Shown here: positions 7,894 through 62,894 of the stretch, piece after piece
How the letters are laid out: the number at the start of each line of letters is the position of its first letter
How positions within the stretch are numbered: position 1 is the first letter of the stretch
Origin: Halolamina pelagica
GTDB taxonomy: Archaea > Halobacteriota > Halobacteria > Halobacteriales > Haloferacaceae
NCBI RefSeq assembly: GCF_900115675.1
Contig: NZ_FOXI01000013.1
Span: 1-64,000, forward strand
DNA length: 64,000 nt
Direction of reading: 5' to 3'
Notes under the pieces: model-generated
Database searches by the model: none
What the model was told of the DNA's origin: nothing
Seen by the model: only the letters and a program-made list of their open reading frames with translations
Program-made: the position numbers and the translations under genes

Positions 7894-7909
7894 CGGACGA
7901 GGAGGTCCT

Positions 7910-9439: not shown

Positions 9440-9444
9440 TCCGT

Positions 9445-11880: not shown

Positions 11881-11967
11881 GTCAGATTAGCGTGACACCC
11901 GTGACGCTCCGGTATCGTTCTTCCATAGGACCATATTTTATGTCACGAGAGTGTGTGGGTGAGACAC

Positions 11968-14280: not shown

Positions 14281-14689
14281 CGCCCACCGTCATACAAATC
14301 ATTAATTACCCCTTTCTTTCTCGCTGAGATTGTGCCGGCTTCTCGCTAATTAGAGCCGACCGCACCGGAGACCCGATGCAGTCGGTGAATCAGCAGTGAT
14401 CAACATGGCCTGTCACAGGAAGATGTGCTACTGAGTACCATAATTCTTTGGCCATTTCTCCGTTTGATGACGACCACATCAAAACGAAGCTGTTGGAAGT
14501 GGCCCAGTGTGGAAGTCTATCTGGGTGGTGCTGATCTCGTGGAGTCGAACCACAAGACCCGACCGCGAAGACTGCGTGGATGGCAGCGGGTATCGAATTC
14601 GGCCAGTTCGGCTTGCAGAGCCCCAGGGTGATCGAACGGCGATCATCCGAGAGACGCGTTGGATGACCGAACGATACGCTAATGCCCCC
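14281..14689. other. Region without a supported gene
   Basis: About 410 bases between the nitric oxide reductase and the His-rich module. The first 70 bases are AT-rich (TCATTAATTACCCCTTTC), suitable for transcription termination. Short frames in 14425-14709 on both strands lack recognisable features. Confidence 0.5.
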
Positions 14690-30351: not shown

Positions 30352-30408
30352 TCGGCTTCAACGATGGAATCCGACAGTGGACCTCTAGTGCGTCGTGGAA
30401 GTAACTGC

Positions 30409-30465
30409 AATTCCGGACAATATGGGGGGTTATTCGGACAAGACGGACATTACGGACACGGGGGT
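30409..30465 (-). repeat. Origin-box-like repeats 6 and 7 (inverted, degenerate)
   Basis: AATTCCGGACAATATGGGGG at 30409-30428, and ATTACGGACACGGGGG at about 30449-30465. Both keep CGGACA and a G-run. They lie just upstream of the orc start, so the initiator may also control its own gene. Confidence 0.5.
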
Positions 30466-30485
30466 TTATGTGGAAGGGGCCCACG

Positions 30486-30495
30486 GGGTATACCC
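30486..30495. promoter_or_regulatory. Palindrome GGGTATACCC at the orc start
   Basis: A 10-base palindrome ends one base before the ATG (30497) of orc. It may be an operator for a leaderless transcript. Confidence 0.35.
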
Positions 30496-30496
30496 A

Positions 30497-31876
30497 ATGA
30501 GCTCGTCTCCGTACTCGACAACCTCCGAGATCTTTGCGGTCGGCGGCGAGGACTACCTCAAAGAGGGCCACACACCAACAACGCTTCCGGAACGAGAAGA
30601 CGAGATCTTGAAGCTTCGACGCTCGTTGAAGCCTGCGGCTCGTGGCGCTGGCGCCGAGAACACGTTCCTCTCGGGTAAGGCTGGACAAGGGAAGACCGCC
30701 GCCGCAAAGGCAGAACTCGCAGAGTTGGAGGCGTTTGCTGCGGCTCAAGATTTGGATCTGACGACAGTATTTTTCTCGTGTGAGGGGATCTCCTCGAGCT
30801 ACACACTCGCATGTGGACTTTGTGAGGAACTCGGTGGCGAGAACCCCAACGGCCATCCGATGCAGAAGGTGCTCGATCACCTCTGGGATGCAATGAACGA
30901 CATCGGGGGGACGATCATCATCGTCCTCGACGAAATTGACAATCTTGGAACCGACGACAAAATCCTCTATTCCCTCCCCCGAGCTCGGGACAAGGACTAC
31001 GTCAACGACGACGTCTACCCGTCGATCATCGGGATTAGTAACGATCTCCAGTGGCGTGACAACCTTGACCCCGCCGCAAAGGACAGTCTCTACGACGACT
31101 CGATCTTCTTCGCTCCCTATGACGCCAATGAGCTTCGCGATATCCTTTCCCGGCGTGCCAGCAAGGCATTCCGTGATACGTCACTCGTGTACGAGACACC
31201 TGACGGTGAAGAGTTCGAGATAGTTGTCAACCTCGACGACGATGACGGCTCGATCGCTGAAAGCTTCGACGCCATCGACGTCGATCGGACAGACTGTACC
31301 CTCGTACGTATCGACTCAGCGGTGCTGTCTGACGACGTGATCCCCCTTTGTGCTGCCTATGCCGCACAAGACAAAGGGAGCGCTCGGCAGGCCATCAAGT
31401 ATCTCCGAAAAGCTGCTGCTATCGCTGAGTCCGAAGGTGACGCCCGTGTCGAAGAAGAGCATGTTCGAACTGCCCAAGGTGAGGCCGAACGAGAACTCAT
31501 CATCGAGGGGATGGAACAACTCACGACGCAGGGGCATCTCGCGCTGGCTGCGGTGACGATCCTCGAGCTTGGAGGCCACTCCGGGATCCGGACTCGGGAT
31601 GTCTACGACGTCTACAAGTCGCTCTCAGACCACATCGATGCCGATCAACTGGCTCAGCGGCGAATGCGTGATCACTTGATCGAACTCGATATGCTGAGCA
31701 TCATCCGGGCGCGCAAATCTGCTTCCGGCTCCGTCGGCGGCGAGGCGTACACGTTTGAACTCCGGGTCGAGCCGTCAACGGCCATCGACGTGCTCGAAGC
31801 CGTCTCCCGGTTCGATTCTGTCGACTTCGATGACCTCACGAAGAACTGGCTGAATGAACAGCAGAAGCTTGGTTGA
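30497..31876 (+). CDS. orc: Orc1/Cdc6-family replication initiator
   Basis: 459 residues from ATG 30497 (MSSSPYSTTSEIF). The frame is open 34 codons upstream, but that part overlaps origin boxes and lacks halophilic character. An AAA+ domain has Walker A SGKAGQGKT (59-67), Walker B IIIVLDEID (140-148) and sensor-1 IIGISND. The C-terminal winged helix (about 370-459: HLALAAVTILELGGHSGIRT, LIELDMLSIIRARKS) binds origin boxes. It is one of the divergent plasmid-type initiators. The gene sits in the middle of the iterons (one box downstream at 31903), so it is almost surely the cognate initiator of this origin. Confidence 0.9.
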   Translation: MSSSPYSTTSEIFAVGGEDYLKEGHTPTTLPEREDEILKLRRSLKPAARGAGAENTFLSGKAGQGKTAAAKAELAELEAFAAAQDLDLTTVFFSCEGISSSYTLACGLCEELGGENPNGHPMQKVLDHLWDAMNDIGGTIIIVLDEIDNLGTDDKILYSLPRARDKDYVNDDVYPSIIGISNDLQWRDNLDPAAKDSLYDDSIFFAPYDANELRDILSRRASKAFRDTSLVYETPDGEEFEIVVNLDDDDGSIAESFDAIDVDRTDCTLVRIDSAVLSDDVIPLCAAYAAQDKGSARQAIKYLRKAAAIAESEGDARVEEEHVRTAQGEAERELIIEGMEQLTTQGHLALAAVTILELGGHSGIRTRDVYDVYKSLSDHIDADQLAQRRMRDHLIELDMLSIIRARKSASGSVGGEAYTFELRVEPSTAIDVLEAVSRFDSVDFDDLTKNWLNEQQKLG

Positions 31877-47509: not shown

Positions 47510-48193
47510 TCAGATGTCGATATCGTCATCATCGTCACCGCCAATAATCGACATAGTAATTTTCAGCACAACGAAGATGACGGCTATAATACCGACATAG
47601 GAGAGAATCTCCTGTGAAGTTGAGAGTGTGTTTCCTTGGTCAACTTGCCCAGCCAAGTTGTTGATTACATTCTCCGGACGGTTTTCCAGTGCGTTCTCTG
47701 CGGTGAATGACGCTTCTTGAGAACTCCCCCCCGGCGTTTCGTAATTGACATCGACCCCTCCAACAGTAACGTCACCTGCGTCAGATCAACCAACGTAGTA
47801 AGCCACGAATTCGACTCGGAGAGTCGTATCTGCAGGTATTTCGTCGGTTTGATAGATCACCGAGGACTCTCGAGTTGATCGATCAAAGTTGATGGACCGA
47901 TCTCCCTCGACAAACACCTGAACGGAGCTCTGGTCAAGGATTGTATTATCAGCGCCGCTGATGACGATTTGCGGGCTGACTGCACTGTCTCCAGTTACCT
48001 CGACTGACCCTGTGACCTCGATTTCATGGCTACTAGGGTTGGAGTCTGAGCTGGCCTCCCATCCGTCGTAAGTACTCGAAAACGAGCCGCTCACAGCTGC
48101 ACTGGCAATGCCGGCGCTCGCTGTGAAGACGGTTAGAGTAATCACGATAGCCAAGATAGTGTATCGCCGCCCCGAAAACGGATTGTCACGCAT
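47510..48193 (-). CDS. Secreted, C-terminally membrane-anchored protein interrupted by an in-frame TGA
   Basis: From 48193 a signal peptide (YTILAIVITLTVFTASAGIA) precedes a beta-rich extracellular domain. The frame meets TGA at 47786-47788 (AYYVG, stop) and continues in the same frame as SDAGDVTVGGVDVNYETPGG, ending in a membrane helix ILSYVGIIAVIFVVLKITM and an acidic tail GGDDDDDIDI at 47510. The two parts make one sensible 227-residue surface protein, so the stop probably replaced a Trp codon. Alternatively a short secreted form is made. Signal peptide and anchor place it outside the cell with its tail facing the tubulin-like proteins. Confidence 0.6.
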
Positions 48194-48436: not shown

Positions 48437-48829
48437 ATGAAGTACAACCTGGAAAAAGGGTCGCACACCGTCTATGCGCTTCAATATCACTTTGTGACCG
48501 TCACAAAGTACCGCACAGACATCCTCACCGACGAGATAGCCGAACGTATAGGTGAGATTGCCAGCGACATTTCCGAGGACTTCGGCGTAAGCATCCAAAA
48601 CGTCAACGGCGGTTCCGACCACGTTCACCTCCTGTTTACAGCGAAGCCCACCACGAATCTCACCAAATTCATCAACTCGCTCAAAGGCGTCTCGTCCCGT
48701 AAGATCCGGGACGAGTACCCCGAGACTCGGCAGGCACTCGACAGCGCGTTCTGGCAACCGGGGTACTTCCTCGCCACCACTGGACAGGTGAGCATCGACG
48801 TGCTGATGGAGTACGTGGAGGACCAGTAG
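48437..48829 (+). CDS. tnpA: IS200/IS605 transposase TnpA (Y1 HUH)
   Basis: 130 residues. The HUH motif is in SDHVHLLF, and the catalytic Tyr is near the end in LMEYVEDQ. FITVTKYR-like HFVTVTKYRTDIL and FWQPGYFLATTG are typical of the family. It catalyses excision and insertion of single-stranded DNA at hairpin ends. It appears intact. It overlaps tnpB by one base (TAGTG). Confidence 0.92.
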   Translation: MKYNLEKGSHTVYALQYHFVTVTKYRTDILTDEIAERIGEIASDISEDFGVSIQNVNGGSDHVHLLFTAKPTTNLTKFINSLKGVSSRKIRDEYPETRQALDSAFWQPGYFLATTGQVSIDVLMEYVEDQ

Positions 48830-50094
48830 TGATGTCCACAACCGTCACAAAGACGTTGCAGGCGACGTTCGTGCCACCCACTGCGCACAAGCAGACGAAA
48901 CTCAACGACTTGCTCGAAACCTACCGTAACGGTCTGCAAGAGGCGTTCGACTCCGGGGCAAGTACCATGTCCGCAGTGAGCGACATCGTGACGCCCTACG
49001 ACCTTCCGTATCAGGCGAAGGCTGCCCTCTGCAACTACGTCCCGAAACTCCGCAAGACGTACAACGCGCAGGAGTTGGACAACGAACACCCGTTACGGTT
49101 CACGAATCAGGCTGCGAAGTTCGACCACTCCGACGAGCGTGAGCACGAGTTTACGTGGTGGGTTCCACGTCCCGGTCGGGGAACGAACTTCTGGATACCG
49201 CTCCGTATCAATCCCGAACAGGAGGACCTCTGGCACGATCTCGTATCGGAGGACGCCAAGGCAGGCGAGATACGACTTCAGAAACACCGGAAGAACTGGG
49301 TACTGCACGTCACCGTCGAGTACCCAGTCGAAGAACCAGCAACGGACGGTGACATCACATACATCGGCTTAGACATCGGAGAAACCGCCCTCATCACGGG
49401 CTGTGCCCTCAAGGACGGTTCTCCGACTGACCCGTTTGTGTGTAGCGGAAGCAGAGCAAAGCATCTTCGAAAGGAGATGCACACGACCCTGAAACGACTC
49501 CAAGAACGTGACGCATCGGAGTGGCGTACTGGCGAACGGTTCGATCATTACCAGAATGCGCTCGCCGATATCGTGGAGAAGGCGTCTCGGGAAGCCGTTA
49601 AGTACGCCAAACAGTTTGAGAACCCGGTGTTGGTGATGGAGGACTTGACGTACATCCGTGAGCGTCTCGACTACGGGAAGTACATGAACCGCCGGCTTCA
49701 TTCGTGGGCGTTCGCCCGACTTCAAGGGCGCATCGAGGACAAGGCGACGGAGGTTGGCATCTCGGTCGAGTATGTGAATCCGGCGTACACGAGTCAGACG
49801 TGCCATTCGTGTCACCGTATCGGTCGGCGGGACTCGCAGGCCGAGTTCCGGTGTCCGCATGACGACTGTCACGTTTCGACGTTTCAGGCCGACATCAACG
49901 CTTCCGCGAATATCGCACGCCGGGTTGACCCGTGGGGAGAGAGCGTCCCGCTTGACAAGGTGGAACGCGATGACTCGCCTCGGGATGGGAGCGGTAGTGA
50001 CACCGCCACGACTCACCGTGAACAGAGCGAGACACCCTCGCAGATGACGCTCACGGCGTTTCAAGAGTCGGAACCCTCTTCCAGCGACGATTGA
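48829..50094 (+). CDS. tnpB: TnpB RNA-guided nuclease of IS200/IS605
   Basis: 421 residues. The RuvC acids are D in IGLDIGETAL, E in VMEDLTYIRE and D in FQADINASANIARR. The zinc ribbon is CHSCHRIGRR..FRCPHDDC. Start is GTG 48829 or ATG 48832. TnpB uses an omega RNA from the element 3-prime end to cut donor sites and promote element retention. The hairpins after the stop (50104-50138) are the expected scaffold end. All key residues are present. Confidence 0.92.
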   Translation: MMSTTVTKTLQATFVPPTAHKQTKLNDLLETYRNGLQEAFDSGASTMSAVSDIVTPYDLPYQAKAALCNYVPKLRKTYNAQELDNEHPLRFTNQAAKFDHSDEREHEFTWWVPRPGRGTNFWIPLRINPEQEDLWHDLVSEDAKAGEIRLQKHRKNWVLHVTVEYPVEEPATDGDITYIGLDIGETALITGCALKDGSPTDPFVCSGSRAKHLRKEMHTTLKRLQERDASEWRTGERFDHYQNALADIVEKASREAVKYAKQFENPVLVMEDLTYIRERLDYGKYMNRRLHSWAFARLQGRIEDKATEVGISVEYVNPAYTSQTCHSCHRIGRRDSQAEFRCPHDDCHVSTFQADINASANIARRVDPWGESVPLDKVERDDSPRDGSGSDTATTHREQSETPSQMTLTAFQESEPSSSDD

Positions 50095-50157: not shown

Positions 50158-52464
50158 TTACTGCAGCAAGTCAGGATACGCAAACCGCTTCTCTAAATCC
50201 GAATCCGAAATTGATCCCAGGAGCGACGAAACATCTGCTTCTGGGTCAGTATAGCAGTCGTGGATTGTTTCGAACTCACTCGTATAGTCCAGAGAAATCG
50301 GTGAGTAAAATCCTAAAAGCGAGAGTGAACAATGCTGCTTCCCATTGACTAAATCATCAACACCTGTGAATTGGTAGTAGAGCTCCCGCTGAAGCGAGTC
50401 GACGCTATCATCGGCCTCTAGCAGGATTTCCTCGATAAGGCTATGGTCACTATCTGAGGCGATAACACCCAATTTTCCGGAGGTTTTCCCGAAATGTGAC
50501 TCTGCAAGATCTTCCACCGGTTCCTCCAGTAGCGTCATCGCCGTTTCGATAGATTGTCGCAGATCCTGTTCACTGAGCACCTCCTTTGAGCATAACGTAG
50601 TGAAATTCGAACTATGGAGTTCGCTGTCGATCGGCCTCTCTTCAAACTGGAGTGGTACAGAGAGGCGTCCCTCTTGGGTCAATTCTTCCCTCATCGACGC
50701 CGCTAACTGCGACTGTTGTTGTGAGAGACTCGACCAACGCTGTTGGGTTGTTTCCCACTCCTCCTGCTTGTCTTCAGCTTTCTCTTCAAGCCGGCTTCGC
50801 TCTTCTTTGAGTTGGTACCGCGAGTTCTTTATTTCGTTTGTTAGAACGGATTCAAAATCACGGAGGTTCTCATATTCCCTACGAAAGCGGTCTGCCCGTT
50901 CGAGGTCAGTTTCGAGCTTGGAAAGCTGCTGGCGTGGCCCTGAGATAAAACCAGGAAGAAGGGAATCATCCATCCTCACATGTAAGTCCTCGACTCGACC
51001 CTGAAGCTCATCGAGTAGCCTCGCTCGCCATTCCTCAAATGATCCCATTTCAGATTCTTCATCCACCGTGAGCTCTGGCTCCGGTGGTTCACTGATATCC
51101 TCTATAGACCACTTCCTCTGAAGCTTCTGGAGATAGCCGCGGAGGGGGTGGGTTACAATCTTCTCTCGAATTTGGTCCCGTAATGAGGATGCACAGAGAA
51201 GTCGGATGGCAAGTTCGGTGGGTACATTTTCGGGGATTTGGCCCTCATGCTGTTCCATCAAATCCTGAACCTGCTTTTCAAATATTTCCATTCTCGAGGT
51301 GTTGGGGTTGGAAGTGGTGGAAATACCTGAAACGATGTCCTCACATTGTGACTTGATTTCTTCCCTAGGCCCTCCTAGAGTTTCCGCGGGGCTGGACTGG
51401 TTTGGTTCATCTCCATTAACTGGACCGTGAGTACCTGCATGCAAGAGGAAATCGATGTACTCAACCGACTTAGTTAGGGATTCACGCTGCTTCCGAAGCG
51501 TACCCAGCTCATCGTCGAGGTCCGCAAGTTCCTGATTGAGAGTGTGATACTGCTTGAGTTGTTCAGTAGGGGCTTCAACAGAGACTCCTGCTATGGAATA
51601 CAAATGCCCTTGCCGAAACCATTCATCGGAGTCCGTTGACCCAAGATAATAGACCAATTGCGCCCCTAGAGAGTTAGTTCGAGAAACGTCAGTGGCATCA
51701 AATTGATCTGTTTCGTTGAACCCGAGTAGCCAATAGCCATCAAACGGATTTTCCTGGACCGAAAGCGATTCAGATCGGATGGTAGCCGGCGAAGCGTCGA
51801 TACCAATTTCGATCGGATATGTCGTGTCGCCGTCAAGGTCCATTAGTCTCCGGAGTTCTGCAAGCGCTGTGTAGGCGTTTGCATAGTGGGCAGGTTCCCC
51901 TTCAGGGGCCTCTATCCGCTCCTCAATCCGATTTAAACTCGGTAATGAACCGATTCCGAATATCTCGACTGTCTTTGCGACCTCTTGGCGGCACTGCTGG
52001 AGCAACATGGAAATGAAAGGGAACGCTCCAGAACCGGTCCCACCCCCCAAACTATTCACTATCCAGACCTGCAGTGGCTCAGAAGTTGCAGAACAATTTT
52101 CGGCCAATGTAGTGATTTGTTCTGTTAGAGCTTCTGAGAGGTGGGCAGAGTCTGCTGCCGAGTCAACGAGATAACGGCCGAGTGGGCGTTGACGAGAAGT
52201 ACCCGCATCAGGAACGAAGTTGTGGTCACCTTGGAGATAATGAACCGATCCAAAATCTCGATTGGGTGCATCACTGTCGGTCGTCAGCTCATACGTAGTC
52301 GCAGACTCTGGGGCAAATGTCTGCAGGTCGCGACTACTAGAGTCGATGGCAAACAACTGAAAACGGTCCGCTACCCCCTCCCTAGAAACGAACTCATCCA
52401 TCTCAGCGAGAATATCGCACCCTGCTCTGCCAATCCCGACTACCAGCACAGGGTGCGACGTCAT
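50158..52464 (-). CDS. Large tubulin/FtsZ-superfamily protein 2
   Basis: 768 residues from ATG 52464 (a TTG 7 codons upstream is less likely). The N-terminal domain carries VVGIGRAG (about 8-15), FAIDSSS, and NSLGGGTGSGAF, the same signature order as protein 1. Coiled coils follow (~315-350, DDELGTLRKQRESLTKSVEY; ~525-640, LERADRFRREYENLRDFESV and RSRLEEKAEDKQEEWETTQQ) before a C-terminal domain. The similarity to 44588-47434 is clear in the GTPase domain, weak elsewhere. The two probably form a pair or heteropolymer (inference). It is first in the minus-strand operon, divergent from the metalloprotease gene. Confidence 0.82.
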   Translation of the reverse strand: MTSHPVLVVGIGRAGCDILAEMDEFVSREGVADRFQLFAIDSSSRDLQTFAPESATTYELTTDSDAPNRDFGSVHYLQGDHNFVPDAGTSRQRPLGRYLVDSAADSAHLSEALTEQITTLAENCSATSEPLQVWIVNSLGGGTGSGAFPFISMLLQQCRQEVAKTVEIFGIGSLPSLNRIEERIEAPEGEPAHYANAYTALAELRRLMDLDGDTTYPIEIGIDASPATIRSESLSVQENPFDGYWLLGFNETDQFDATDVSRTNSLGAQLVYYLGSTDSDEWFRQGHLYSIAGVSVEAPTEQLKQYHTLNQELADLDDELGTLRKQRESLTKSVEYIDFLLHAGTHGPVNGDEPNQSSPAETLGGPREEIKSQCEDIVSGISTTSNPNTSRMEIFEKQVQDLMEQHEGQIPENVPTELAIRLLCASSLRDQIREKIVTHPLRGYLQKLQRKWSIEDISEPPEPELTVDEESEMGSFEEWRARLLDELQGRVEDLHVRMDDSLLPGFISGPRQQLSKLETDLERADRFRREYENLRDFESVLTNEIKNSRYQLKEERSRLEEKAEDKQEEWETTQQRWSSLSQQQSQLAASMREELTQEGRLSVPLQFEERPIDSELHSSNFTTLCSKEVLSEQDLRQSIETAMTLLEEPVEDLAESHFGKTSGKLGVIASDSDHSLIEEILLEADDSVDSLQRELYYQFTGVDDLVNGKQHCSLSLLGFYSPISLDYTSEFETIHDCYTDPEADVSSLLGSISDSDLEKRFAYPDLLQ

Positions 52465-52566
52465 CAAACGATGACTATTCTGCAATTGTAAAAAGAATGG
52501 CCTTCCAATTCATCGAGATGTCCCATTATCAGGAGTTCTAGTCACAAAGGTCCGGGAGGTTGTAGG

Positions 52567-52577
52567 TTTATTATACC
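52567..52577 (+). promoter_or_regulatory. TATA-like box of the metalloprotease operon
   Basis: TTTATTATACC lies about 40-50 bases upstream of ATG 52617. Spacing fits an archaeal TATA box with a nearly leaderless transcript. The 150-base gap also serves the divergent tubulin-like operon. Confidence 0.45.
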
Positions 52578-52616
52578 CTAGGCAAAACGTGCTCCCGAAC
52601 TACGACACGGCATATA

Positions 52617-54059
52617 ATGGCTCGAACATTTACTCAAAAACTCTCTGCAGAACTCGACTATGACTCCGAGGGAACTGTCCATCTATATGCCGAGTATGAT
52701 CTCCACCGAAGTCTAGAGTCACTCACACTCTCGTTTCCGGATTATCTGTCCCCAGAAACAACCAGTGGGTTTTCGCACTCTCAACGGCACCAATGTGAGT
52801 GGGATGGCGTAACTAATGATCCATGGATTCAATTTCGATACGACGTAGATAGAACGAATTCGGGTGGCTACGAATTCGTGGACACCGGTGGATGGGCCCT
52901 ACTGAAATATCCACCCATCAACACATCATGGCGATATACAGGCCCGGAGATCGATCTGCAGCGGGAATTTGACGTTGGTCAGGAAGGAGTTGCGAGTTCG
53001 GATGGAAGTATTGTCTATCTCGGTCCGCACACTGAAGAGCAGTTTCGAGCTGGTGGGCAGACCTTCCGAATTGCAATCCCAGGACAGGCATCTCTCAGGC
53101 CATCGCTCAGTGAAGTGCAAGCGTCACTAAGCTATGCAGCAAACAACCTCGACGTCGGGGGAAAGAACGATGCAGTTGTGGTGATTGCAGCGCCCTCGAA
53201 TATTAACTGGGGCTGGGGTGGGCTTCAGAGTGGAGTCAATGGTTACTGGGCTGTTGACTCAAGTCGAGTTGGAAATGCGAATAATACGTGGGTACACGAG
53301 TATATCCACACCCGACAGGAGTGGACTCCAGACAGTTCGACTGACTGGCTCGTCGAAGGAACCGCGAATTACTACGCTGCACTAGTCACGTATCTGGAGG
53401 GCCGAATTTCTTTCTCTGCCTTTCGTCGGTTTCTGGCAATTGATCGCCACAGTGACTCTGTACTGAGCGATCCAGGCCGATGGTCTGCCCCGAACGCACA
53501 CTACAGTAAAGGACGCCGGGTCACAGCTGCTCTCGACTCGAAAATTCGACGTGAGACGAACGGTGAGAGAACGTTTGAGGACGTTTTCCGGCGAATGAAT
53601 CGTATCGATGGCCCGCTTACTGATCAAAAACTCCAAAATATAGTTCGGACTGTTGTCGGTCAGAGTCTCAGTGGCTGGTTTGCTAAATACGTCAACGGAA
53701 TCCAGACACCTGATATCCCTCAGGATGAGCAATTGTTCACCGGGGAAACTATCCCGGAACCTGAACCTGAATCTGAACCCGAACCCGAACCTGAACAGGA
53801 AGAGATTGGAGAAACAGATTCTGATGAGACCAATGAATGTCCGGTCTGCGGGAAGTTCGTCACCAGTGATGAACAGTTCTGCGACAGTTGTGGGACAGCA
53901 CTATTCAGGCAATGTCCGGTCTGTGGGCGTGGTGTCACCGACGAACCGTATTGTCCAGAGTGTGGCACATCGATTCGAGAGGAATGTGATGTGTGCGGAT
54001 CTCGCCGGCATTCATCGGAGGAGTACTGTTCCAATTGCGGTACGAAGTTCGAAAAATAA
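52617..54059 (+). CDS. Zinc metalloprotease (peptidase-MA-like) with C-terminal zinc ribbons
   Basis: 480 residues. The HExxH motif is HEYIH (227-231), with the third ligand in WLVEGTANYY (E247), a gluzincin pattern of the peptidase-MA type. A linker of repeated Glu-Pro (EPEPESEPEPEPE, ~380-395) leads to three double-Cys zinc ribbons: CPVCGKF..CDSCG, CPVCGRG..CPECG and CDVCGSR..CSNCG. There is no signal peptide, so it acts in the cytoplasm or is held there by the ribbons. It starts divergently from tubulin-like gene 2. A role in processing components of the island is inference. Confidence 0.8.
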   Translation: MARTFTQKLSAELDYDSEGTVHLYAEYDLHRSLESLTLSFPDYLSPETTSGFSHSQRHQCEWDGVTNDPWIQFRYDVDRTNSGGYEFVDTGGWALLKYPPINTSWRYTGPEIDLQREFDVGQEGVASSDGSIVYLGPHTEEQFRAGGQTFRIAIPGQASLRPSLSEVQASLSYAANNLDVGGKNDAVVVIAAPSNINWGWGGLQSGVNGYWAVDSSRVGNANNTWVHEYIHTRQEWTPDSSTDWLVEGTANYYAALVTYLEGRISFSAFRRFLAIDRHSDSVLSDPGRWSAPNAHYSKGRRVTAALDSKIRRETNGERTFEDVFRRMNRIDGPLTDQKLQNIVRTVVGQSLSGWFAKYVNGIQTPDIPQDEQLFTGETIPEPEPESEPEPEPEQEEIGETDSDETNECPVCGKFVTSDEQFCDSCGTALFRQCPVCGRGVTDEPYCPECGTSIREECDVCGSRRHSSEEYCSNCGTKFEK

Positions 54060-54078: not shown

Positions 54079-54300
54079 TCAGTTACAAACCCGACAGATC
54101 GAGATCGTAACGCCGCCATAGAACGTCTTGTTCACTAATTGGTTTCCACAGGTGTCACAGCTCTCGTTTGCTTTGTCGGTAACTCGATTATCAGTAGCTT
54201 TCGACCCGCACGCACAATTTGCTCCGACAATATCCTGCACGTAGGATGGACTATCAGTCGTTAACAATAAGAGTATGTTAGAGACCCAACTTGCGGTCAT
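54079..54300 (-). CDS. Small zinc-ribbon protein
   Basis: 73 residues from ATG 54300 (MTASWVSNIL). Paired cysteines CACG, CDTCG and CRVCN in the C-terminal half suggest one or two zinc sites, similar in style to the ribbons of the convergent metalloprotease. The N-terminal part is hydrophobic. It may also be a relic, as composition is weakly halophilic. Confidence 0.4.
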   Translation of the reverse strand: MTASWVSNILLLLTTDSPSYVQDIVGANCACGSKATDNRVTDKANESCDTCGNQLVNKTFYGGVTISICRVCN

Positions 54301-54438
54301 ATGATAGATCGCAGTACTTCCGGCTCCCCTTCCAAATCTAGCACTAGTTGAAAATCTAAACAGAGCCGACACTCCATATCCTCCCAGTCGTTTACTGTGG
54401 TGGCGAGCTCAGCACTGATGTGTAGAGCCTAAATTCAA

Positions 54439-54847: not shown

Positions 54848-56026
54848 ATGGTTACCCGGCGACAGTTCCTCGGAGTGGCCGGCACGGGAGTTGCTGCGAT
54901 GGGATTGTGGGGACCCAGAGCTCACAAGCAATACTCGAATATCAAACCCTCACCGACGCCCATCGATAACCCACAACTTCCGGATACCGCAGATAGATGG
55001 CCAGAACTCGGCAAGTGGAACCTTCCGGGGGACCCTCACTGCGTACTCCCTACCGATGAGGGACGCTGTTTTGTCGGAGGGAAAATCGAACAGGGCTCCA
55101 ACGGAACCAGCTACGTTGCGTTTCGGGGGACACAGGCAGATACTGTGGTCCACAAATTCAACACTGAATCGTCGAGAATTGAGTCTATTACCGACCTCAC
55201 CCTGGTTGGGGACAGTGTCATTGCACTCCAGACTATCGGAGACACGGGCCATCGACTCATCCGTTTGACCCGAGATGCGCAGATTCAGTCAATGACGAAG
55301 ACCCATTGGCGTGAAACTCCACTTTGGGATCAACAACTGTTCACTCGTCCTGCAGATGATGAATTACTACTCGCAGGGGTCCCGGCCGATTCAAAATGGA
55401 ACGAAGGGCTGGCTGTAGTTCAACTCACTGCAGATGGGACACCACAATGGAGCCGCACATATGGGAATGGTGTCAATCCCTTCAACGTCCGATATAGCGG
55501 TCAAACGCTAGCTGCTAACGTCCAGAGACACACAGATTCTGGCAGTCCGACTGCGTTAATGGTCGTAAGGGGAAATGAACTCCTGTATCATCGGCGTATC
55601 CCTGGAAGGAAAATTTTCGATATTCGGTTGGTAGACGACAGCGACGGTGATGTTGTTGTAGTCGGGAAAATCAGTGATCAGAATCCCGAACAGGGGTACA
55701 TCGCTCGGCTGGACAAATCTGGTGACCCACAGTGGTGGCGTACGCTCCCCGAGCCTGACCAATCGACAACGTTCATGTCCATCATTGAGTCTGAGGAGGG
55801 ATACCGAATCCAGACCATCGCCACACCTGAGTCGAAAGGTCCTGACTATTCGATCGAAATGGCTATTGACTCGAGCGGAGAGGTACAGGGTTTTCAATCG
55901 TATCCGATGACCGTCTTTGGCGGGCAATTCGGGGAGAACAGTGTATTTGTCACGGAGTCTGGTGATCAACCTCAACTGCTCCAGTACCGAGATATGAATC
56001 GGCCGGACGCAGGTGAGAACGAATGA
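54848..56026 (+). CDS. Tat-exported beta-propeller-type protein
   Basis: 392 residues from ATG 54848. The signal MVTRRQFLGVAGTGVAAMGL has the twin Arg and a hydrophobic stretch, so it is exported folded through Tat. The mature part consists of repeated beta-blades (WNLPGDPHCVLPTDEGRCFV, IALQTIGDTGHRLIRLTRDA, PQWSRTYGNG, DPQWWRTLPEPDQ) resembling PQQ-like propellers without an evident cofactor site. It overlaps the next membrane protein gene by ATGA, so both act together. The role may be ligand binding or scaffolding outside the cell. Confidence 0.75.
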   Translation: MVTRRQFLGVAGTGVAAMGLWGPRAHKQYSNIKPSPTPIDNPQLPDTADRWPELGKWNLPGDPHCVLPTDEGRCFVGGKIEQGSNGTSYVAFRGTQADTVVHKFNTESSRIESITDLTLVGDSVIALQTIGDTGHRLIRLTRDAQIQSMTKTHWRETPLWDQQLFTRPADDELLLAGVPADSKWNEGLAVVQLTADGTPQWSRTYGNGVNPFNVRYSGQTLAANVQRHTDSGSPTALMVVRGNELLYHRRIPGRKIFDIRLVDDSDGDVVVVGKISDQNPEQGYIARLDKSGDPQWWRTLPEPDQSTTFMSIIESEEGYRIQTIATPESKGPDYSIEMAIDSSGEVQGFQSYPMTVFGGQFGENSVFVTESGDQPQLLQYRDMNRPDAGENE

Positions 56027-57747
56027 ATTGGCCCAGGATGCTCTGGAAGGCCAAACAGGTTGCAGAATGGGTATACAAGCTTGCCTCCACCGAGCGGGTC
56101 GTAGTCATATTGAGCCTTTTCGCTCTATACGGGAAGCAAATACTCGAAGCCATTCAGGCAACTCCCATCGCGGGTATCTCCAGTATCCTTGGCCCGATAT
56201 TCAGTGGAATCGACGTCTTCTACTGGAGCGGTGTGGCTATGATGTATTTCATCCATCTCTTCTCGATCAAAGAGGTTTACCAGCGATTTGATCTCGAGCT
56301 ATTCGATCAATATCCGAGCTTCTACCATGCATTCGCTGCCGTCGCTACAGTCATTGCACAGTATGTCCTTATCAGCAGTATCCCTGGACAGACAGCTCCA
56401 AAGTACCTCCAATCCTCCCTCACGACGCATAATATCGCCGTTGTGCTGCCATTTTTCGCCTTGATTATATTTGCGAAACTGAGGTCAAATAGCCCCCTCA
56501 GCCACCCTGGAAGCACATACCTCAACGTCCTATCGAAATTTGGGATAACAGAGGACGAGCGCCGAGAAGTGTACAATCAGAGCGATTTCCGTCGGTTTGG
56601 CACCTATGTAATGGTCATAGCTGTGACGGCGGTCTACTTCTCTGCACTTCTTATCATGGGAAGTTTCACAGCAACTTTGCGAATTTACCCGGGAGTACTT
56701 GAGATCCTCGCAATAGTTGCAGTAATCGGGTCAAAAGCACTCCGGACATCACGAATGGGGAAGCAACGAATCACTCTTGCCGACAGATTCGAACAGGCTG
56801 CAGCTTTTGATTCTCCGTTCTATGATGTAATTAGCGACACCCCGCTTGGAGCAGGGTGGGGATTCATGTTAGCCCTGCTTTTGGGTACGATACTGGTGCC
56901 GCTGCCGATACTCATACAGCCTGGAGTCGGCCCATTTCCGATTGATACATTCCTAACCGGGGTCAGTGCCTTTGTAATCCCCAATGGGATTCCGACTTCC
57001 CAGGCGATCGGGATGATCGTGCGGTCGGTCTTCTGGGTCGTATTTGCGTCCACGCCGTATCTTGTTGCGATCTATGGCCTCTGGTTCTGGTACCAGATGG
57101 CCCGTCGAACCCCCAGCATCATTCAGCAACGAGCCCTAGAATCGGAAGTTTTCGAGTACGATGAGGATGTGGACACACCACCGGTAGCCCGACCTCGGGG
57201 ATGGCTTCTACCAGCGGCCGGGCTACTTCTTGTTACTTTTTCACACCCACTGTACCAGCAATTGCCCGGGTTACCAATTGCTGAATTGAATGCCCCAAGT
57301 ATCCAAATAGCAGCCTGGATTACAGCATTCGGGTTATTTGGTTCGAGCGTACTTGCAACAGCAACTGCAGAGCCAGAATTGCCGCGATTCCCCACGGTCG
57401 AACTTCTGTTGCCAGCCCTATTGATTGGCGGGTCACTAGTATATGCCTCAAGACAATGGGGTCTCCTGCCTTCGTATGCTGTTTTGGTTGGGATTATCCC
57501 CTTTATAACATACAGTGAAGAATTGTTTAACTGGATTGTTGCACCCTCTCGGCAGTCGAGAATTCTGAGATCCCTTCCAGCGGGGATTTTCATTGGGCTG
57601 GGGGGATGGCATGTCCTTGGGGCTATCAGCGGTGTCGCCTACGGCTTTGCTATGTTTGCGACGTTCTTCTTCACGGCAGAGTGGAAGGCACGTGAACAAG
57701 TCAAAGAGTCCAACGATGCAGAGTCAGAGAAGTCCTCTACCGAATGA
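56023..57747 (+). CDS. Polytopic membrane protein, hypothetical
   Basis: 574 residues with about 12-13 membrane helices (for example VVVILSLFALYGKQI, ISSILGPIFSGIDVFYWSGV, NIAVVLPFFALIIFAKL, YVMVIAVTAVYFSALLIMGS, LVAIYGLWFWYQMA). A cytoplasmic, charged C-terminal tail closes it. No transporter signature is recognised; scattered conserved-looking W/P-rich helices suggest a channel, protease or scaffold. It is coupled by ATGA to the exported propeller protein upstream. Confidence 0.7.
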   Translation: MNWPRMLWKAKQVAEWVYKLASTERVVVILSLFALYGKQILEAIQATPIAGISSILGPIFSGIDVFYWSGVAMMYFIHLFSIKEVYQRFDLELFDQYPSFYHAFAAVATVIAQYVLISSIPGQTAPKYLQSSLTTHNIAVVLPFFALIIFAKLRSNSPLSHPGSTYLNVLSKFGITEDERREVYNQSDFRRFGTYVMVIAVTAVYFSALLIMGSFTATLRIYPGVLEILAIVAVIGSKALRTSRMGKQRITLADRFEQAAAFDSPFYDVISDTPLGAGWGFMLALLLGTILVPLPILIQPGVGPFPIDTFLTGVSAFVIPNGIPTSQAIGMIVRSVFWVVFASTPYLVAIYGLWFWYQMARRTPSIIQQRALESEVFEYDEDVDTPPVARPRGWLLPAAGLLLVTFSHPLYQQLPGLPIAELNAPSIQIAAWITAFGLFGSSVLATATAEPELPRFPTVELLLPALLIGGSLVYASRQWGLLPSYAVLVGIIPFITYSEELFNWIVAPSRQSRILRSLPAGIFIGLGGWHVLGAISGVAYGFAMFATFFFTAEWKAREQVKESNDAESEKSSTE

Positions 57748-57840
57748 GTAGGGAAGACTGCTTTGTGTCGTTGGCATTGTATCAGAAAGCGTTCATTGTC
57801 CCCGCAGATTTATCAGCAACCACATATAGCCTACCAAGCA

Positions 57841-58238
57841 TGTCCCAAGAAACAGACTGGCCCTCCCTCATAGCAGGGAGCGTGCTCGTCGTTGCTGGCT
57901 CCAGCATCGCCGGTCTGTATTCATTCGATGGACAGGAACTAGCCGTATTCGTTGGCTTTTGTCTGTTCGTCCTCGGCTACTTTCTCGCCCGCGACGGTTG
58001 GGTGATCCTCTCGCCAGTTGAACACCCAGTCCGAGATGCTGAGGCGTCACTCCACGCTGACCACCCATTGGTTCGGAGTGCCGTTGGCCTCGTTGGGATC
58101 TACGGCATCGCAGCAGGAGTGACACAGTTTTCGCTTACAGTGATTGATCCAAGCGTAATCAGTGCGGTCAGAGCTGGTGTGTACAGCGTTGGAGGCTATG
58201 CATGGACTCACGTCGTTATCCATCAGAGTCTTTTCTAA
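57841..58238 (+). CDS. Small membrane protein with four helices
   Basis: 131 residues from ATG 57841 (MSQETDWPSL). An ATG at 57744 overlapping the upstream stop is in frame, but the added 32 residues look non-halophilic, and a TTTATC box lies 30 bases before 57841. Four hydrophobic segments are seen (LIAGSVLVVAGSSIAGLYSF, LAVFVGFCLFVLGYFLA, SAVGLVGIYGIAAGVTQF, and the C-terminal one). It is followed 2 bases later by a similar small membrane protein. The function is unknown. Confidence 0.6.
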
Positions 58239-58240
58239 GT

Positions 58241-58660
58241 ATGGTTGGCCAGATATTTCTCAAACGTGGTCACATAGGCTTTCTCGCGGGGCTTGCTACG
58301 ACCTCAATGGGCCTCTCCTCAGGGTTTATCTGGGCCTCAAATGGACAGGCAGTACTCGTTGTGATCGCCGCTATCGCTGCTTGGACAGGCTATCTCGGAG
58401 CTCACTATGCCGTCACCGGACGGTTCCTCGATGGGGATACGCGTCAAAAAGAAGGGATCGGCGGCCGTGAAGCTCTCCATCTCGACGCAGGCTGGCAGTA
58501 TCTGGCGGTCGGTATCGGTGTCAGTATCCTCATTTCAGGGATGGTCATCGGTGCGGTGTATATCAACCGAGGGAACCACCTGGCGACGAATATCGGTGGC
58601 GTGCTCTTCCTCGGTGGGTACGTGATTGCCCATTACGGCGCAACGAAGGAGCTCCTGTAA
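58241..58660 (+). CDS. Small membrane protein with four helices
   Basis: 139 residues from ATG 58241, starting 2 bases after the previous stop. Helices: HIGFLAGLATTSMGLSSGFI, AVLVVIAAIAAWTGYLGAHY, WQYLAVGIGVSILISGMVIG, and IGGVLFLGGYVIAHYGATKE. It is of the same size and topology as its neighbour and may be its paralogue. No motif. Confidence 0.6.
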   Translation: MVGQIFLKRGHIGFLAGLATTSMGLSSGFIWASNGQAVLVVIAAIAAWTGYLGAHYAVTGRFLDGDTRQKEGIGGREALHLDAGWQYLAVGIGVSILISGMVIGAVYINRGNHLATNIGGVLFLGGYVIAHYGATKELL

Positions 58661-58679
58661 GATTTGACTCCGCAGAGGA

Positions 58680-60098
58680 TTACGCAAGCGAGAGTAACGA
58701 GAGTATGACCGAGATGGCATCGATCGACAGTACAGTCACAAGTAGCCGATCATTGATCGGCCACTCCGGAGCCTCTCGGTAAGTCTGGAGGGTCTCGATA
58801 TCTTCTCTAGACCGGCCCTCGGATGATCGCTCCCGCTGTATTTCTCGACGTTTGTCACGGACCATTTTTTGGTGGATCTGCCAGAAGGAGAAGTATAACC
58901 AAATCGCAATAACGGCCCCGTAGACAGCGACCGGAACTGCGTAACTTGTCGCCCAGATCAACGGGTCCCATCCAGAGATCATTGCTTCCGTTACTGGACT
59001 CAGCGGGTCTCGTGAACCCTGCACGTGGAGCCGATAGACCAAGTACACTCCAGCTAGAACTAAGAGCGAGTTAACACGTGTCGCAAATCGGCCGAAGTCA
59101 CGGAACCCTCCTGCGTCGTCTTCATGGCCGGGAATGTACTGGAGGGTTTGTACGTTGTCAGAGAGTAATTCGTTTAGAAACCGGACGAGAAGTACGAATT
59201 GTACAGCCAAAACAACGATCGCGATATCGATCGCCGTGACGATGAGCAGTGATGTTGGAGCATCAAGGACGAACGGCCCACGGCTGACCAGCCAGATTCC
59301 GACAAATTGAGCAACAAATAGGATACTCACCAAGATGACCGCTGGGGTATTGCCTACTTCAATCGCAAAGGCGTCCAAGAAACGAGGTAGAAAGACGTTT
59401 TCGTACGAATCTGCGTCAGCACTCGTTTGGAGAAGGTCAGTCTTGTTGAGGTTAGTGAATAACGTCTCTGTTCGGCGCATTCCGTCATAGACTAGCGGTC
59501 CCCCCAGGTACACTAACAACAGAAACCCAAAGCTGTAGACGATATTCGGCTGGAGGTCACTGATGGGGGTAAAGTAGACTGTCCAAGCACTCCAAGCGGC
59601 ACCCACCAGAAGTACCGACAACACACCGTAGAAAATCCCAGCATGAACTAACTCGACAGTCATCTCCCGCAGCTCTTCATCACCATCAGCGGTACTGAAG
59701 ATGAACGCGATGAGGAGAATAATCGCTAGCCAGAGGGCTAGCCCACTAACCAAACCGATCGAAGCAAGCCCCACCTGACCAGGAATCAGGACCTCTAAAC
59801 CGTTGATCTCAGTCACCGCAGCTTCAACTGTCAAAAGGAGCAACGCCCCCAGCACAATTACAGGGGTGTGTCGAAATGCGTAGGTCAATACCCGGGAAGA
59901 TACTTGTGAAATGCGTGATTTCGGCTCGGTGCCAAAATCGAGCATAAACGGTATATCGTCAGTTACGTCAAAGGGATTCAGTGAACAGTATTCGTGGAGA
60001 TAGGTCGGGCTAGAATGTGGCTCATCCAGATTCCAGACCCATAACGAATTCACAGCGTCGTTCGATTGTTCTTCATCCACGTGTAGATCACCATCCAA
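58680..60098 (-). CDS. Polytopic membrane protein, hypothetical
   Basis: 472 residues if TTG 60098 is used; GTG 60080 is the next possible start. The first ~65 residues are cytoplasmic and acidic, then about nine membrane helices (VIVLGALLLLTVEAAVTEI, GLVSGLALWLAIILLIAFI, VILVSILFVAQFVGIWLVS, IDIAIVVLAVQFVLLVRFL, YAVPVAVYGAVIAIWLYFSF) and a basic loop (MVRDKRREIQRERSSEGRSR) before the last helix. No family is recognised. Divergent to the hydantoinase-like gene, with which it shares a 220-base AT-rich promoter region. Confidence 0.65.
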   Translation of the reverse strand: MDGDLHVDEEQSNDAVNSLWVWNLDEPHSSPTYLHEYCSLNPFDVTDDIPFMLDFGTEPKSRISQVSSRVLTYAFRHTPVIVLGALLLLTVEAAVTEINGLEVLIPGQVGLASIGLVSGLALWLAIILLIAFIFSTADGDEELREMTVELVHAGIFYGVLSVLLVGAAWSAWTVYFTPISDLQPNIVYSFGFLLLVYLGGPLVYDGMRRTETLFTNLNKTDLLQTSADADSYENVFLPRFLDAFAIEVGNTPAVILVSILFVAQFVGIWLVSRGPFVLDAPTSLLIVTAIDIAIVVLAVQFVLLVRFLNELLSDNVQTLQYIPGHEDDAGGFRDFGRFATRVNSLLVLAGVYLVYRLHVQGSRDPLSPVTEAMISGWDPLIWATSYAVPVAVYGAVIAIWLYFSFWQIHQKMVRDKRREIQRERSSEGRSREDIETLQTYREAPEWPINDRLLVTVLSIDAISVILSLLSLA

Positions 60099-60318: not shown

Positions 60319-61806
60319 GTGATACTCTATTTAGAGATTGAGTTTGGACGTGTGGTTGGGGCTCTAATAGAGAACGATGAAGTCACTGACTATGCTACTC
60401 TATCGGATATAAATACCGCCGATGATCTTGCCGAAGTTCTTTCTCAATTTTCTGCTAATGATCGCAGTGACGTTGATCAAGTCCAAGCAGCTATCGGGAA
60501 ATTAGCCACACAAGATCAGAGGGGGGAACTCCCAAGCTGCACGGCGATCCTAGCCCCGGGCTATGGGCTGCCAGTGGAGACCGAGACTATTGCGAATCAC
60601 ACTAAGAGTATTGATGGTGGTTTGACCCCACAAGGGCAAGTCACTCAACCACCACCAACAGAGATCAATACCGATACAGAGAACGCCGTAGTTTCTGCTA
60701 AGTTTGGGCATAAGAATCCAGATTATGAAATGGATATTGGTGCGGAAATTGCGGCTTCCTCAATCAGATTTGGACATAAAGTCTCAGGAGAAATGGGGTT
60801 CCGGGAACGGACAAAAACAGCTGTAGCCAATGTTAGACTCTCGCAGCTCTATCACTCAATAAAAGACCAATTGAAGCAGGCTGTATCGAGCGCAGATATC
60901 GAGGCCCCACTATATGCAATTAGAAGTGATGGGACATTAGCAAATTTAGATACGATTGATGAAACGCCGGCTATGCTATTGTCTGGAGTAGTAGCTGCTC
61001 GAGCCTTTGGGGCAAATTCTCGGGTGGAACGAGATGGAGCTGTTCTCACCATGACTCCAGATACCACATACATTGTCCCTCCATTCATACAAGGTATCCC
61101 GCTCGAACAGGGCTATTTTGCGGGAGATCTACGGTCTGGGTACACTTCTATTCAAACCGTTAGTGTTCCAATTGGATATGATACGCCTGTTTCTCAACTT
61201 ATTTCCGCTAATATAGATTCCTCAAAGGATCTCCAGTCGGTCCTCAGACCCGGTGACTTCAACGATGAAGACTCAACCCTAGCTTCTGGTCAGATAGACA
61301 ATAAAGAAAAAGTTAGGACCGAACTGATAGCTGAACTCCGCTCGAGTGTCAAGGAACTTTCTCAATCTGCATCTACTGTTGATACACTCATTGCAGGAGA
61401 TCCATACATTGCATCGGTCATTAACGAGTTAGCAGACAGTTTTGGCGCTCATGGAATCGTCCCAGACACAGTAACGACGGTTGGTGCATTCAGTTGCTCC
61501 AATTCAGAAATCCAAATTACTGTCCGGTTACAGATCGACACTGCCAGAAACATTATTTCTGTTAACACGAATGGGGAGATCTATTCTGAACAAATGGACC
61601 TGTCTAAAAAGTTGAATAGACTTGATGTTGAGGACTTTGTCAAAGAGTACGTAACAAATAGTTTACAAAAACACCAGCAACCAATTGCATCGGTCGATAT
61701 AATTGAGTCACGAGTTGTCACCCTAGTCGAAGATGATACGCAAATCGGTGAACTGCACACAATCATCGCAGAAGGTACTGCCAAACCGGAGACGGGGATG
61801 AAATGA
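60319..61806 (+). CDS. Divergent hydantoinase/oxoprolinase-like (actin-fold) protein
   Basis: 495 residues from GTG 60319. The start (LYLEIEFGRVVGALIENDEV) is placed like the first phosphate loop of ASKHA proteins, and LYAIRSDGTLANLDTIDETP, then AMLLSGVVAARAFGA, matches the HyuA core (QSDGGLMS, LLSGPAAGVVGA). The catalytic DIGGTSTD loop is not seen, so enzymatic hydantoinase activity is doubtful. More AT-rich codon use than genes to the left. It overlaps the deacetylase gene by ATGA. An actin-fold regulator or NTPase beside two tubulin-like proteins is an attractive but unproven idea. Confidence 0.55.
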   Translation: MILYLEIEFGRVVGALIENDEVTDYATLSDINTADDLAEVLSQFSANDRSDVDQVQAAIGKLATQDQRGELPSCTAILAPGYGLPVETETIANHTKSIDGGLTPQGQVTQPPPTEINTDTENAVVSAKFGHKNPDYEMDIGAEIAASSIRFGHKVSGEMGFRERTKTAVANVRLSQLYHSIKDQLKQAVSSADIEAPLYAIRSDGTLANLDTIDETPAMLLSGVVAARAFGANSRVERDGAVLTMTPDTTYIVPPFIQGIPLEQGYFAGDLRSGYTSIQTVSVPIGYDTPVSQLISANIDSSKDLQSVLRPGDFNDEDSTLASGQIDNKEKVRTELIAELRSSVKELSQSASTVDTLIAGDPYIASVINELADSFGAHGIVPDTVTTVGAFSCSNSEIQITVRLQIDTARNIISVNTNGEIYSEQMDLSKKLNRLDVEDFVKEYVTNSLQKHQQPIASVDIIESRVVTLVEDDTQIGELHTIIAEGTAKPETGMK

Positions 61807-62894
61807 CATATCTAGAGCGTGAGTCGTTTTCAGAGTACGATCAGAGTCTAGCCCTAGTGTACGATAAAAAATACACGCAGTATATGCAAGGGACGACCCA
61901 TCCAGAGCGTCCTGAGAGATTAGTCTATTCACTCGATATGATGCGTGAAGAGTCTTTGATAGGCGACGTTATCCAAAAGGTGACGCCAGAAAGTGCCTCA
62001 CTCGATTCCATACAGCAGGTACATACAAATCGGTATCTCCAGCGTCTTTATCGCCAATCTCGGAAAGGGTCGGGATCTATAAGTGCTGATACCAAGATTA
62101 CTGATCAAACATGGACTGCAGCAAGGCTCGCTGCAGGAGGAGCTATCCGGGCTGCCGAACTGGCTTGGGAGCAACAATATGATAGTGCGTATGCCTTTAC
62201 ACGCCCACCAGGTCATCACGCACTACCTGACCGAGCTCACGGCTTCTGTTTTTTGAACAACACCGCGATTGCGACAAAAGCAATCCGACAGGAAACAGAT
62301 TGTTCCCGAGTTGCAATCTGGGATATTGATGCACATCACTGTGACGGCACGCAACGCGTATTCTATGAGGATTCTGATGTGCTAGTTACTTCGATACACG
62401 AGGAAGATGCAACAAAATTCCTCAATATTGGAGGTACAGAGTATACTGGGGAGGGAGAAGGGAGAGGTCGAACCGTTAATATTCCCCTTCCCCCTCAAGC
62501 TGGTGACGATGCATATCAAGCCGCAGTAGAGCAAATCGCTCAACCAATTTCCGAGTCATTCAGTCCAGATATTTTGTTACTGGAAATCGGGTTTGATGCT
62601 CATTTCGGAGATGCACTTTCTCAGATGCATCTTACTGCTAATGGATATGGAGACCTCGTAAGAAAGGCCCAAAACTTTGCTAATACCCACTGTGATGGAC
62701 GTCTTGGGTTGATTCTGTCTGGAGGCTATGATTTCACAGCAGGACTTCCATATAGTAATCTAGCGACGTTAAATGCACTTCTGGGCGGTCCCGAAGACTT
62801 TGTCACCGAACCGAACCAGCCTCCAACCCAAGTTACCGGAGAAAATCATATAACACGAGCACGAGAAGCTCAGGCACATCATTGGTCTCTCTGA
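61803..62894 (+). CDS. Histone-deacetylase-family hydrolase
   Basis: 363 residues; arginase/deacetylase fold. The active site is complete: RPPGHH (H138, H139), zinc ligands D176 and H178 in IWDIDAHHCDGTQ and D265 in EIGFDAH, and the transition-state Tyr Y309 in SGGYDF. It removes acetyl groups from lysine, polyamines or similar amides. Coupled by ATGA to the hydantoinase-like gene. In this setting the substrate could be an acetylated protein of the island (tubulin acetylation is known in eukaryotes; here it is only a suggestion). Codon use is AT-rich. Confidence 0.9.
   Translation: MTYLERESFSEYDQSLALVYDKKYTQYMQGTTHPERPERLVYSLDMMREESLIGDVIQKVTPESASLDSIQQVHTNRYLQRLYRQSRKGSGSISADTKITDQTWTAARLAAGGAIRAAELAWEQQYDSAYAFTRPPGHHALPDRAHGFCFLNNTAIATKAIRQETDCSRVAIWDIDAHHCDGTQRVFYEDSDVLVTSIHEEDATKFLNIGGTEYTGEGEGRGRTVNIPLPPQAGDDAYQAAVEQIAQPISESFSPDILLLEIGFDAHFGDALSQMHLTANGYGDLVRKAQNFANTHCDGRLGLILSGGYDFTAGLPYSNLATLNALLGGPEDFVTEPNQPPTQVTGENHITRAREAQAHHWSL

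What the first reader, a model, noticed from the sequence alone, without database searches (positions are those of the whole stretch)
52617..54059. Metalloprotease with three zinc ribbons at the head of the divergent arm
Seen: HEYIH with WLVEGTANYY, an acidic Pro-Glu linker, and three paired CxxC ribbons. This combination is unusual; ribbons normally bind nucleic acid, ribosomes or proteins. Inference: a targeted cytoplasmic protease that could act on a component of the island when triggered.
Basis: partly seen in the sequence, partly recalled or inferred. Interest (0 to 1): 0.55.

Follow-up and report, generated by a model that had tools for sequence, protein, structure and literature searches.

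The report
Zinc-ribbon protease paired with archaeal tubulins
In a few salt-loving archaea, an enzyme that looks like a protein-cutting metalloprotease, carrying three zinc-binding tails and lacking an export signal, sits back to back with genes for unusual tubulin-like proteins, so the two probably work together inside the cell.

Summary
Window 52617-54059 (+) encodes a 480-aa protein without an export signal: an HEYIH/WLVEG metallopeptidase domain, an acidic Pro-Glu linker and three CxxC-pair ribbons. The predicted fold (pLDDT 90.4) is that of M1/M61 aminopeptidases, and the zinc-site residues and catalytic-type Tyr are near-invariant. The catalytic domain is common in haloarchaea, but nearly all sampled homologues are exported and ribbon-free, with no tubulin found in the stretch held. 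The ribbon-tailed, signal-less form is rare: nine genomes were found, and in 9 of 9 it is divergent from the first gene of a Tubulin_2 (PF13809, FtsZl1) operon with a small membrane-anchored partner. Three of the nine came from a later search of another family. Its step "cuts an island component when triggered" is untested. Best reading: a cytoplasmic, ribbon-docked regulatory protease of a kinase- and vWA-poor variant of the FtsZl1 tubulin system. In the papers searched, no protease was reported as part of an FtsZl1 system. Substrate and activity are unknown. I call it a new variant of a known kind.

The parts
52617..54059 (+). M1/M61-like metalloprotease with acidic linker and three C-terminal zinc ribbons (480 aa)
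52617..53141 (+). N-terminal beta domain (residues 1-175), as in M1/M61 peptidases; no signal peptide
53142..53726 (+). catalytic domain (about residues 176-370): HEYIH 227-231, third-ligand Glu 247, Tyr 296 in the YxKG motif
53751..53810 (+). acidic Pro-Glu linker (about residues 379-398), low confidence in the model, lengths differ between orthologues
53829..54056 (+). three CxxC-pair zinc ribbons (residues 405-480)
52465..52616 (.). shared divergent promoter region between the protease and the tubulin operon; TTTATTATA before the protease gene and a block near the tubulin gene are shared with the Haloarcula copy
50158..52464 (-). Tubulin_2 (FtsZl1) protein, type B, 768 aa from ATG 52464 (TTG alternative at 52485)
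47786..48193 (-). small membrane-anchored partner (signal peptide, outer domain); here cut at codon 136 by an in-frame TGA, homology continues to about 47549 and includes the C-terminal membrane segment
44588..47434 (-). Tubulin_2 (FtsZl1) protein, type A, 948 aa
48437..50094 (+). transposon insertion (TnpA-like ORF 48437-48829 and TnpB 48829-50094) inside the tubulin operon; not a functional part
56023..60098 (.). cassette of membrane-protein genes (56023, 57744, 58202 on +; 58680-60098 on -) whose homologues also flank the tubulin of G394

Best explanation
It is a cytoplasmic M1/M61-fold zinc metallopeptidase that belongs to a horizontally spread variant of the FtsZl1 (Tubulin_2) system. The three ribbons probably act as a docking arm, joined by a flexible acidic linker, that brings the peptidase to the tubulin assembly or to a protein at the membrane face. 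There it would trim or cleave one island protein and so control assembly or disassembly. Shown: the architecture, the conserved active-site residues, the purifying selection, and the 9 of 9 linkage. Inferred: zinc binding, activity, docking, and the identity of the substrate. A preference for internal cuts over N-terminal ones is a weak inference from GLQ standing where M61/M1 enzymes carry a Glu (that motif is recalled).
For: Conserved gluzincin residues in 59 rows, a high-confidence M1/M61 fold (4fgm Z 24.1, 352 aligned; 6iff Z 22.8, 333 aligned) and a local sequence match to 4fgm over the third-ligand Glu and YxKG regions (E 2.1e-4). No export signal, and ribbons under strong constraint. 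Nine genomes with three or more ribbons and no signal (G000, G067, G030, G367, G389, G379, G505, G506, G477): 9 of 9 divergent from the first gene of a Tubulin_2 operon carrying a type-A tubulin and the anchored protein (for G379 the ribbon tail lies at the end of another contig). In the 19-row tubulin tree all 7 type-A and all 3 type-B rows come from such loci, each clade 100/100. Presence is patchy: 3 of 170 Haloferacaceae.
Against: No substrate, activity or expression evidence. Signal-less relatives in G088 (one ribbon) and G089 (no ribbon) have no tubulin in the 20 kb read, so the cytoplasmic form does not strictly need one. Nine genomes are few; G367/G389 are near copies and G379, G505 and G506 are one genus. 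Protease and tubulin identities do not rank the genomes alike (protease: G067 71%, G030 61%; tubulin A: G030 63%, G067 about 35%), which suggests exchange of parts rather than strict co-evolution. In the window the operon carries a transposon and a stop in the anchored gene, so this copy may be decaying.
Confidence: 0.5

Rival explanations
1. The island is a biological-conflict (anti-phage or growth-arrest) system and the protease is its effector: the tubulins form a sensor or scaffold and the released or activated protease cuts host or invader proteins.
For: Patchy distribution and an AT-richer island than a chromosomal-type sample locus; a relative island in G394 carries PP2C, kinase-FHA, FHA-ribbon and vWA genes, parts that Kaur et al. 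2020 (PMC7159879, section 29 read) assign to GTPase-centred conflict systems, some with tubulins.
Against: PADLOC gives only weak hits to the tubulins and none to the protease; no variable effector position is seen: the protease is constant in 9 of 9 islands; nothing was found in viral contigs.
Confidence: 0.25
2. The peptidase fold is used as a peptide-binding scaffold and is not catalytic; ribbons and fold tether the tubulin to a partner.
For: M1/M61 folds bind peptide ends (recalled); the Glu of the exopeptidase motif seems replaced.
Against: HExxH, E247 and the YxKG Tyr are kept in all aligned ribbon-tailed rows; dN/dS 0.086.
Confidence: 0.1
3. A cytoplasmic aminopeptidase for general peptide recycling that merely travels with the island.
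For: Several annotated plasmid homologues are named glycyl aminopeptidase, and G088/G089 keep a signal-less form without tubulin.
Against: 9 of 9 divergent placement beside the tubulin operon in six genera (g1, g9, g17, g46, g55, g99) and strong constraint on the ribbons.
Confidence: 0.1

Closest known systems
FtsZl1 / Tubulin_2 (PF13809) gene systems (Makarova and Koonin 2010, PMC2875224)
   Same: Tubulin_2 proteins with GGGTGSG and long C-terminal regions, several membrane proteins around, sparse spread (sections read)
   Different: That paper lists vWA, kinases, GTPases and OmpA-like proteins; its main text has no 'protease', 'peptidase' or 'zinc'. Here no vWA hit lies on the window contig, and a ribbon-tailed protease is present.
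GAP1-N2 GTPase-centric systems with tubulin (Kaur et al. 2020, PMC7159879)
   Same: Tubulins with C-terminal coiled coil or helical domain, zinc ribbons, membrane link; PP2C and ribbon-bearing kinases as in G394
   Different: No GTPase family other than tubulin was hit over its cut-off in the island genes scanned, and no FHA in the genome; the ribbons sit on a metallopeptidase; section 29 names no metallopeptidase in these systems.
M61 / M1 peptidases (PDB 4fgm, 7xyo, 6iff)
   Same: N-terminal beta domain plus thermolysin-like domain, HExxH...E, YxKG
   Different: Below the Pfam M61 cut-off (11.4 of 22 bits); GLQ at the likely place of the GxMEN/GGLEH Glu (motifs recalled); C-terminal ribbons.
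Exported haloarchaeal homologues annotated as glycyl aminopeptidase
   Same: Same catalytic domain, for example the paralogue L002 in this genome, 33%
   Different: Signal peptide and C-terminal membrane segment, no ribbons.

Membership tests
Clan MA gluzincin (M1/M61 type) | HExxH plus downstream Glu as third zinc ligand | tested here: met
   H227, E228, H231 invariant and E247 at least 90% in 59 rows
Clan MA gluzincin (M1/M61 type) | M1/M61 fold with N-terminal beta domain | tested here: met
   (4fgm Z 24.1, rmsd 3.7, 352 aligned)
Pfam M61 (PF05299) | score over the curated cut-off | tested here: not met
   11.4 bits, cut-off 22
M1/M61 aminopeptidases | Glu of the GxMEN (M1) or GGLEH (M61) motif that binds the substrate N-terminus (motif recalled, from no call) | tested here: inconclusive
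   GLQ/GLH/GLE at the fitting place, but residue-level superposition was not available
Zinc-ribbon (DZR PF12773) proteins | score over cut-off, paired CxxC | tested here: met
   46.6 bits, cut-off 27.3; six CxxC
FtsZl1 system | Tubulin_2 protein with GGGTG(S/T)G | tested here: met
   73.0 and 70.8 bits against 27; GGGTGSG in both window tubulins
FtsZl1 system | vWA gene in the operon | tested here: not met
   no vWA (PF13519) hit on the window contig C34; near-tubulin hits only in G394, G091, G396
FtsZl1 system | protein kinase in the operon | tested here: not met
   no kinase family among the window genes scanned; FHA 0 in the six ribbon-type genomes tested
GAP1-N2 conflict system | ribbon-bearing GTPase | tested here: inconclusive
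   none seen among scanned window genes; not searched genome-wide

The most novel reading that the evidence does not exclude
A protease hard-wired to a prokaryotic tubulin: the ribbons dock the M61-like enzyme on FtsZl1 filaments (or their membrane anchor) and cleavage irreversibly switches the assembly, replacing the kinase/phosphatase control seen in the G394 island.
Probability: 0.2. Interest if true: 0.8.

Novelty: new variant of a known kind. Interest (0 to 1): 0.5.

Why it matters
FtsZl1 tubulins have been predicted from gene neighbourhoods since 2010 and their role is still open in the papers read here. A constant, apparently active protease partner gives a concrete handle: it predicts a cytoplasmic substrate, a docking site for the ribbons and a way to switch the system, all testable in Haloarcula japonica or, by transfer of the island, in Haloferax volcanii.

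Tried and rejected
Exported enzyme: rejected, no signal peptide or membrane segment. Viral origin: one viral-contig scan, 116 pattern stretches, none encoding a relative. Plasmid carriage of the ribbon form: tblastn of the protease gave 10 of 72,556 plasmid records, all under 60% identity and none covering 80% of the query; type-A tubulin gave none. Known defence family: no useful PADLOC hit. Literature: searches for tubulin_2 + haloarchaea, glycyl aminopeptidase + haloarchaea (74), double zinc ribbon + archaea + protease (75), tubulin + zinc ribbon + haloarchaea + peptidase (94) and M61 + haloarchaea + metalloprotease (95) each found 0 papers; searches on FtsZ-tubulin superfamily (36), FtsZl1 (42), PF13809 (43) and conflict systems (44) gave listings, of which I read parts of three papers (PMC2875224, PMC9871819, PMC7159879). 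The library lacks most subscription papers. Residue-level proof that GLQ replaces the GxMEN Glu: tried by profile search of the core, which aligned the M61 entries only downstream of HExxH. The named genome-contig scan used two short patterns and found only 3 loci, so it is no census. A second structure job was not used. The co-occurrence probability assumes independent genomes and is not used as evidence.

Full report
What is there. The ORF at 52617-54059 (+) has the HEYIH motif, WLVEG, a Pro-Glu linker and six CxxC motifs. Pfam calls the tail a double zinc ribbon over cut-off; the catalytic part reaches no cut-off, with M61 at 11.4 of 22 bits. The upstream gene on the other strand, and a second gene further on, are Tubulin_2 proteins (73.0 and 70.8 bits, cut-off 27), the family that Makarova and Koonin named FtsZl1 (PMC2875224: opening part and section 6 read).

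The catalytic domain. AlphaFold2 on a 59-row alignment gave mean pLDDT 90.4. Foldseek and VIA-align place the fold with M61 and M1 aminopeptidases (4fgm Z 24.1, rmsd 3.7, 352 aligned; 6iff Z 22.8, 333 aligned). A profile search of PDB sequences aligns 4fgm over the third-ligand and YxKG regions (E 2.1e-4). H227, E228, H231 and Y296 are invariant and E247 nearly so. At the spacing where M61 and M1 enzymes have GGLEH or GxMEN (recalled), the family mostly has GLQ, GLH or GLE, so aminopeptidase activity is doubtful. This is inference.

Exported and cytoplasmic forms. The catalytic domain is common: 129 of 170 Haloferacaceae genomes have a match at E 1e-3, some of these to the ribbons alone, and 267 of 392 order genomes at E 1e-20. 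I classed the proteins on the 118 loci held; fragments without an N-terminus cannot be classed. Those with a low N-terminal hydrophobic peak (under 1.0) are from G000 (window), G389, G367, G067, G030, G379, G088, G394 and G089. One is borderline (G152, 1.36), and the remaining full-length rows score 2.09 or more. Of the low group the first five carry three ribbons in the same ORF. G379 is cut at its contig end and a three-ribbon tail lies at the end of its contig C75 (inferred to be the same gene). G088 and G394 have one ribbon and G089 none. Most of the exported examples were held with only about 1.5 kb on each side, so absence of tubulin beside them is weakly tested.

Linkage to tubulins. 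In G000, G367, G389 and G030 the gene is divergent from a type-B tubulin, in G067 from the anchored-protein gene that heads the tubulin cluster, and in G379 from a type-A tubulin. As a later test I searched 146 genomes of the Haloarcula family with the protease (7 hits at E 1e-66) and with tubulin A (7 hits at E 1e-15). Besides G367, G389 and G379, both searches hit G477, G505 and G506, and in all three the protease is signal-less, has three ribbons (four in G477) and is divergent from a type-A tubulin, with the anchored protein near. The protease hit G483 is an exported, ribbon-free form. The tubulin hit G485 is a 270-aa fragment on a 13 kb contig with no protease match. So 9 of 9 ribbon-tailed (three or more), signal-less proteases sit with tubulins. 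In the family of G394, 1 of 125 genomes has the protease at E 1e-66 and 4 of 125 tubulin A at E 1e-15; of the four, G545 and G523 have no protease match in the stretches read, nor has G396.

Against strict dependence. G088 and G089 keep a signal-less protein without a tubulin match in 20 kb. The other tubulin loci read (G085 two loci, G091, G031, G190, G036, G380, G293, G396, and G177, whose stretch gave no window-tubulin hit) have no protease match. The tubulin tree used 19 rows (first 430 residues; identical rows and the G067 second-copy fragment left out): type A (7 rows) and type B (3 rows) are each 100/100 and come only from protease-bearing loci. G477, G505 and G506 were found later and are not in the tree; they are called type A by best match.

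System type. G394 has the richest island: protease with one ribbon, PP2C, two kinase-FHA proteins, FHA with ribbons, vWA and tubulin, which is the kit described for FtsZl1 and for GAP1-N2 systems (Kaur et al. 2020, passages and section 29 read). The six ribbon-type genomes tested have no FHA at all, and no vWA hit lies beside their tubulins in the stretches held. Homologues of four window membrane-protein genes also cluster beside the G394 tubulin. I therefore read the window island as a kinase- and vWA-poor variant in which the ribbon-tailed protease is the constant partner.

Spread. Named copies are in Haloarcula sebkhae, Haloarcula japonica and Haloferax marinum. Presence is scattered, and tubulin A is 87% identical between the window and the Haloarcula copies, against 58% for tubulin B and about 74-76% for the protease. 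The island genes are about 50-55% GC against 70.8% for the locus of the exported paralogue in the same genome. ParA-like and Orc1/Cdc6 genes on the window contig suggest a secondary replicon or integrated element. All this fits horizontal transfer.

Mechanism. Shown: architecture, conserved active-site residues, constraint (dN/dS 0.086 catalytic, 0.055 ribbons, G505 against G506), linkage. Inferred: zinc binding, catalysis, ribbons as a docking arm, an island protein as substrate.

Noticed in passing
window 47786-48193 (-): The anchored-protein gene has an in-frame TGA at codon 136; homology to the intact Haloarcula copy (74%) continues beyond it to about 47549. Broken gene, or a sequencing error.
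   Followed up: partly
window 48437-50094: TnpA-like ORF and TnpB gene inserted between tubulin B and the anchored-protein gene.
   Followed up: partly
window 52464-52617: AAAAAGAATGGCCTTCCAATTCA near the tubulin start and TTTATTATA before the protease are shared with the Haloarcula copy while the rest of the spacer differs: promoter or operator candidates.
   Followed up: partly
L063 (G394) 2463-14177: FtsZl1-type island with one-ribbon protease, PP2C, two kinase-FHA proteins, FHA plus ribbons, vWA, tubulin and a coiled-coil membrane protein.
   Followed up: partly
L139 (G477) 4107-14797: Three tandem tubulins, an anchored-protein match and a protease with four ribbon pairs.
   Followed up: partly
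L142 (G485) 10940-11749: 270-aa fragment 87% identical to the end of tubulin A, without the protease: a decayed island.
   Followed up: no
window 25055-25909 (-) and 30395-31873 (+): ParA-like and Orc1/Cdc6 genes, suggesting a plasmid or integrated replicon.
   Followed up: no
window 54079-54372 (-): 97-aa ORF, convergent with the protease, with CACG, CDTCG and CRVCN motifs; no Pfam hit. Possibly a small zinc-finger gene with a later start.
   Followed up: no
window 60319-62894 (+): Hydantoinase_A-like protein followed by a histone-deacetylase-domain protein, in a stretch of lower GC (about 45-47%).
   Followed up: no
L065 (G085) against L099 (G088) and L119 (G089): Flanking genes of a tubulin locus in G085 match the flanks of the signal-less protease locus in G088/G089: the same site seems to hold tubulin in one species and protease in others.
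   Followed up: partly
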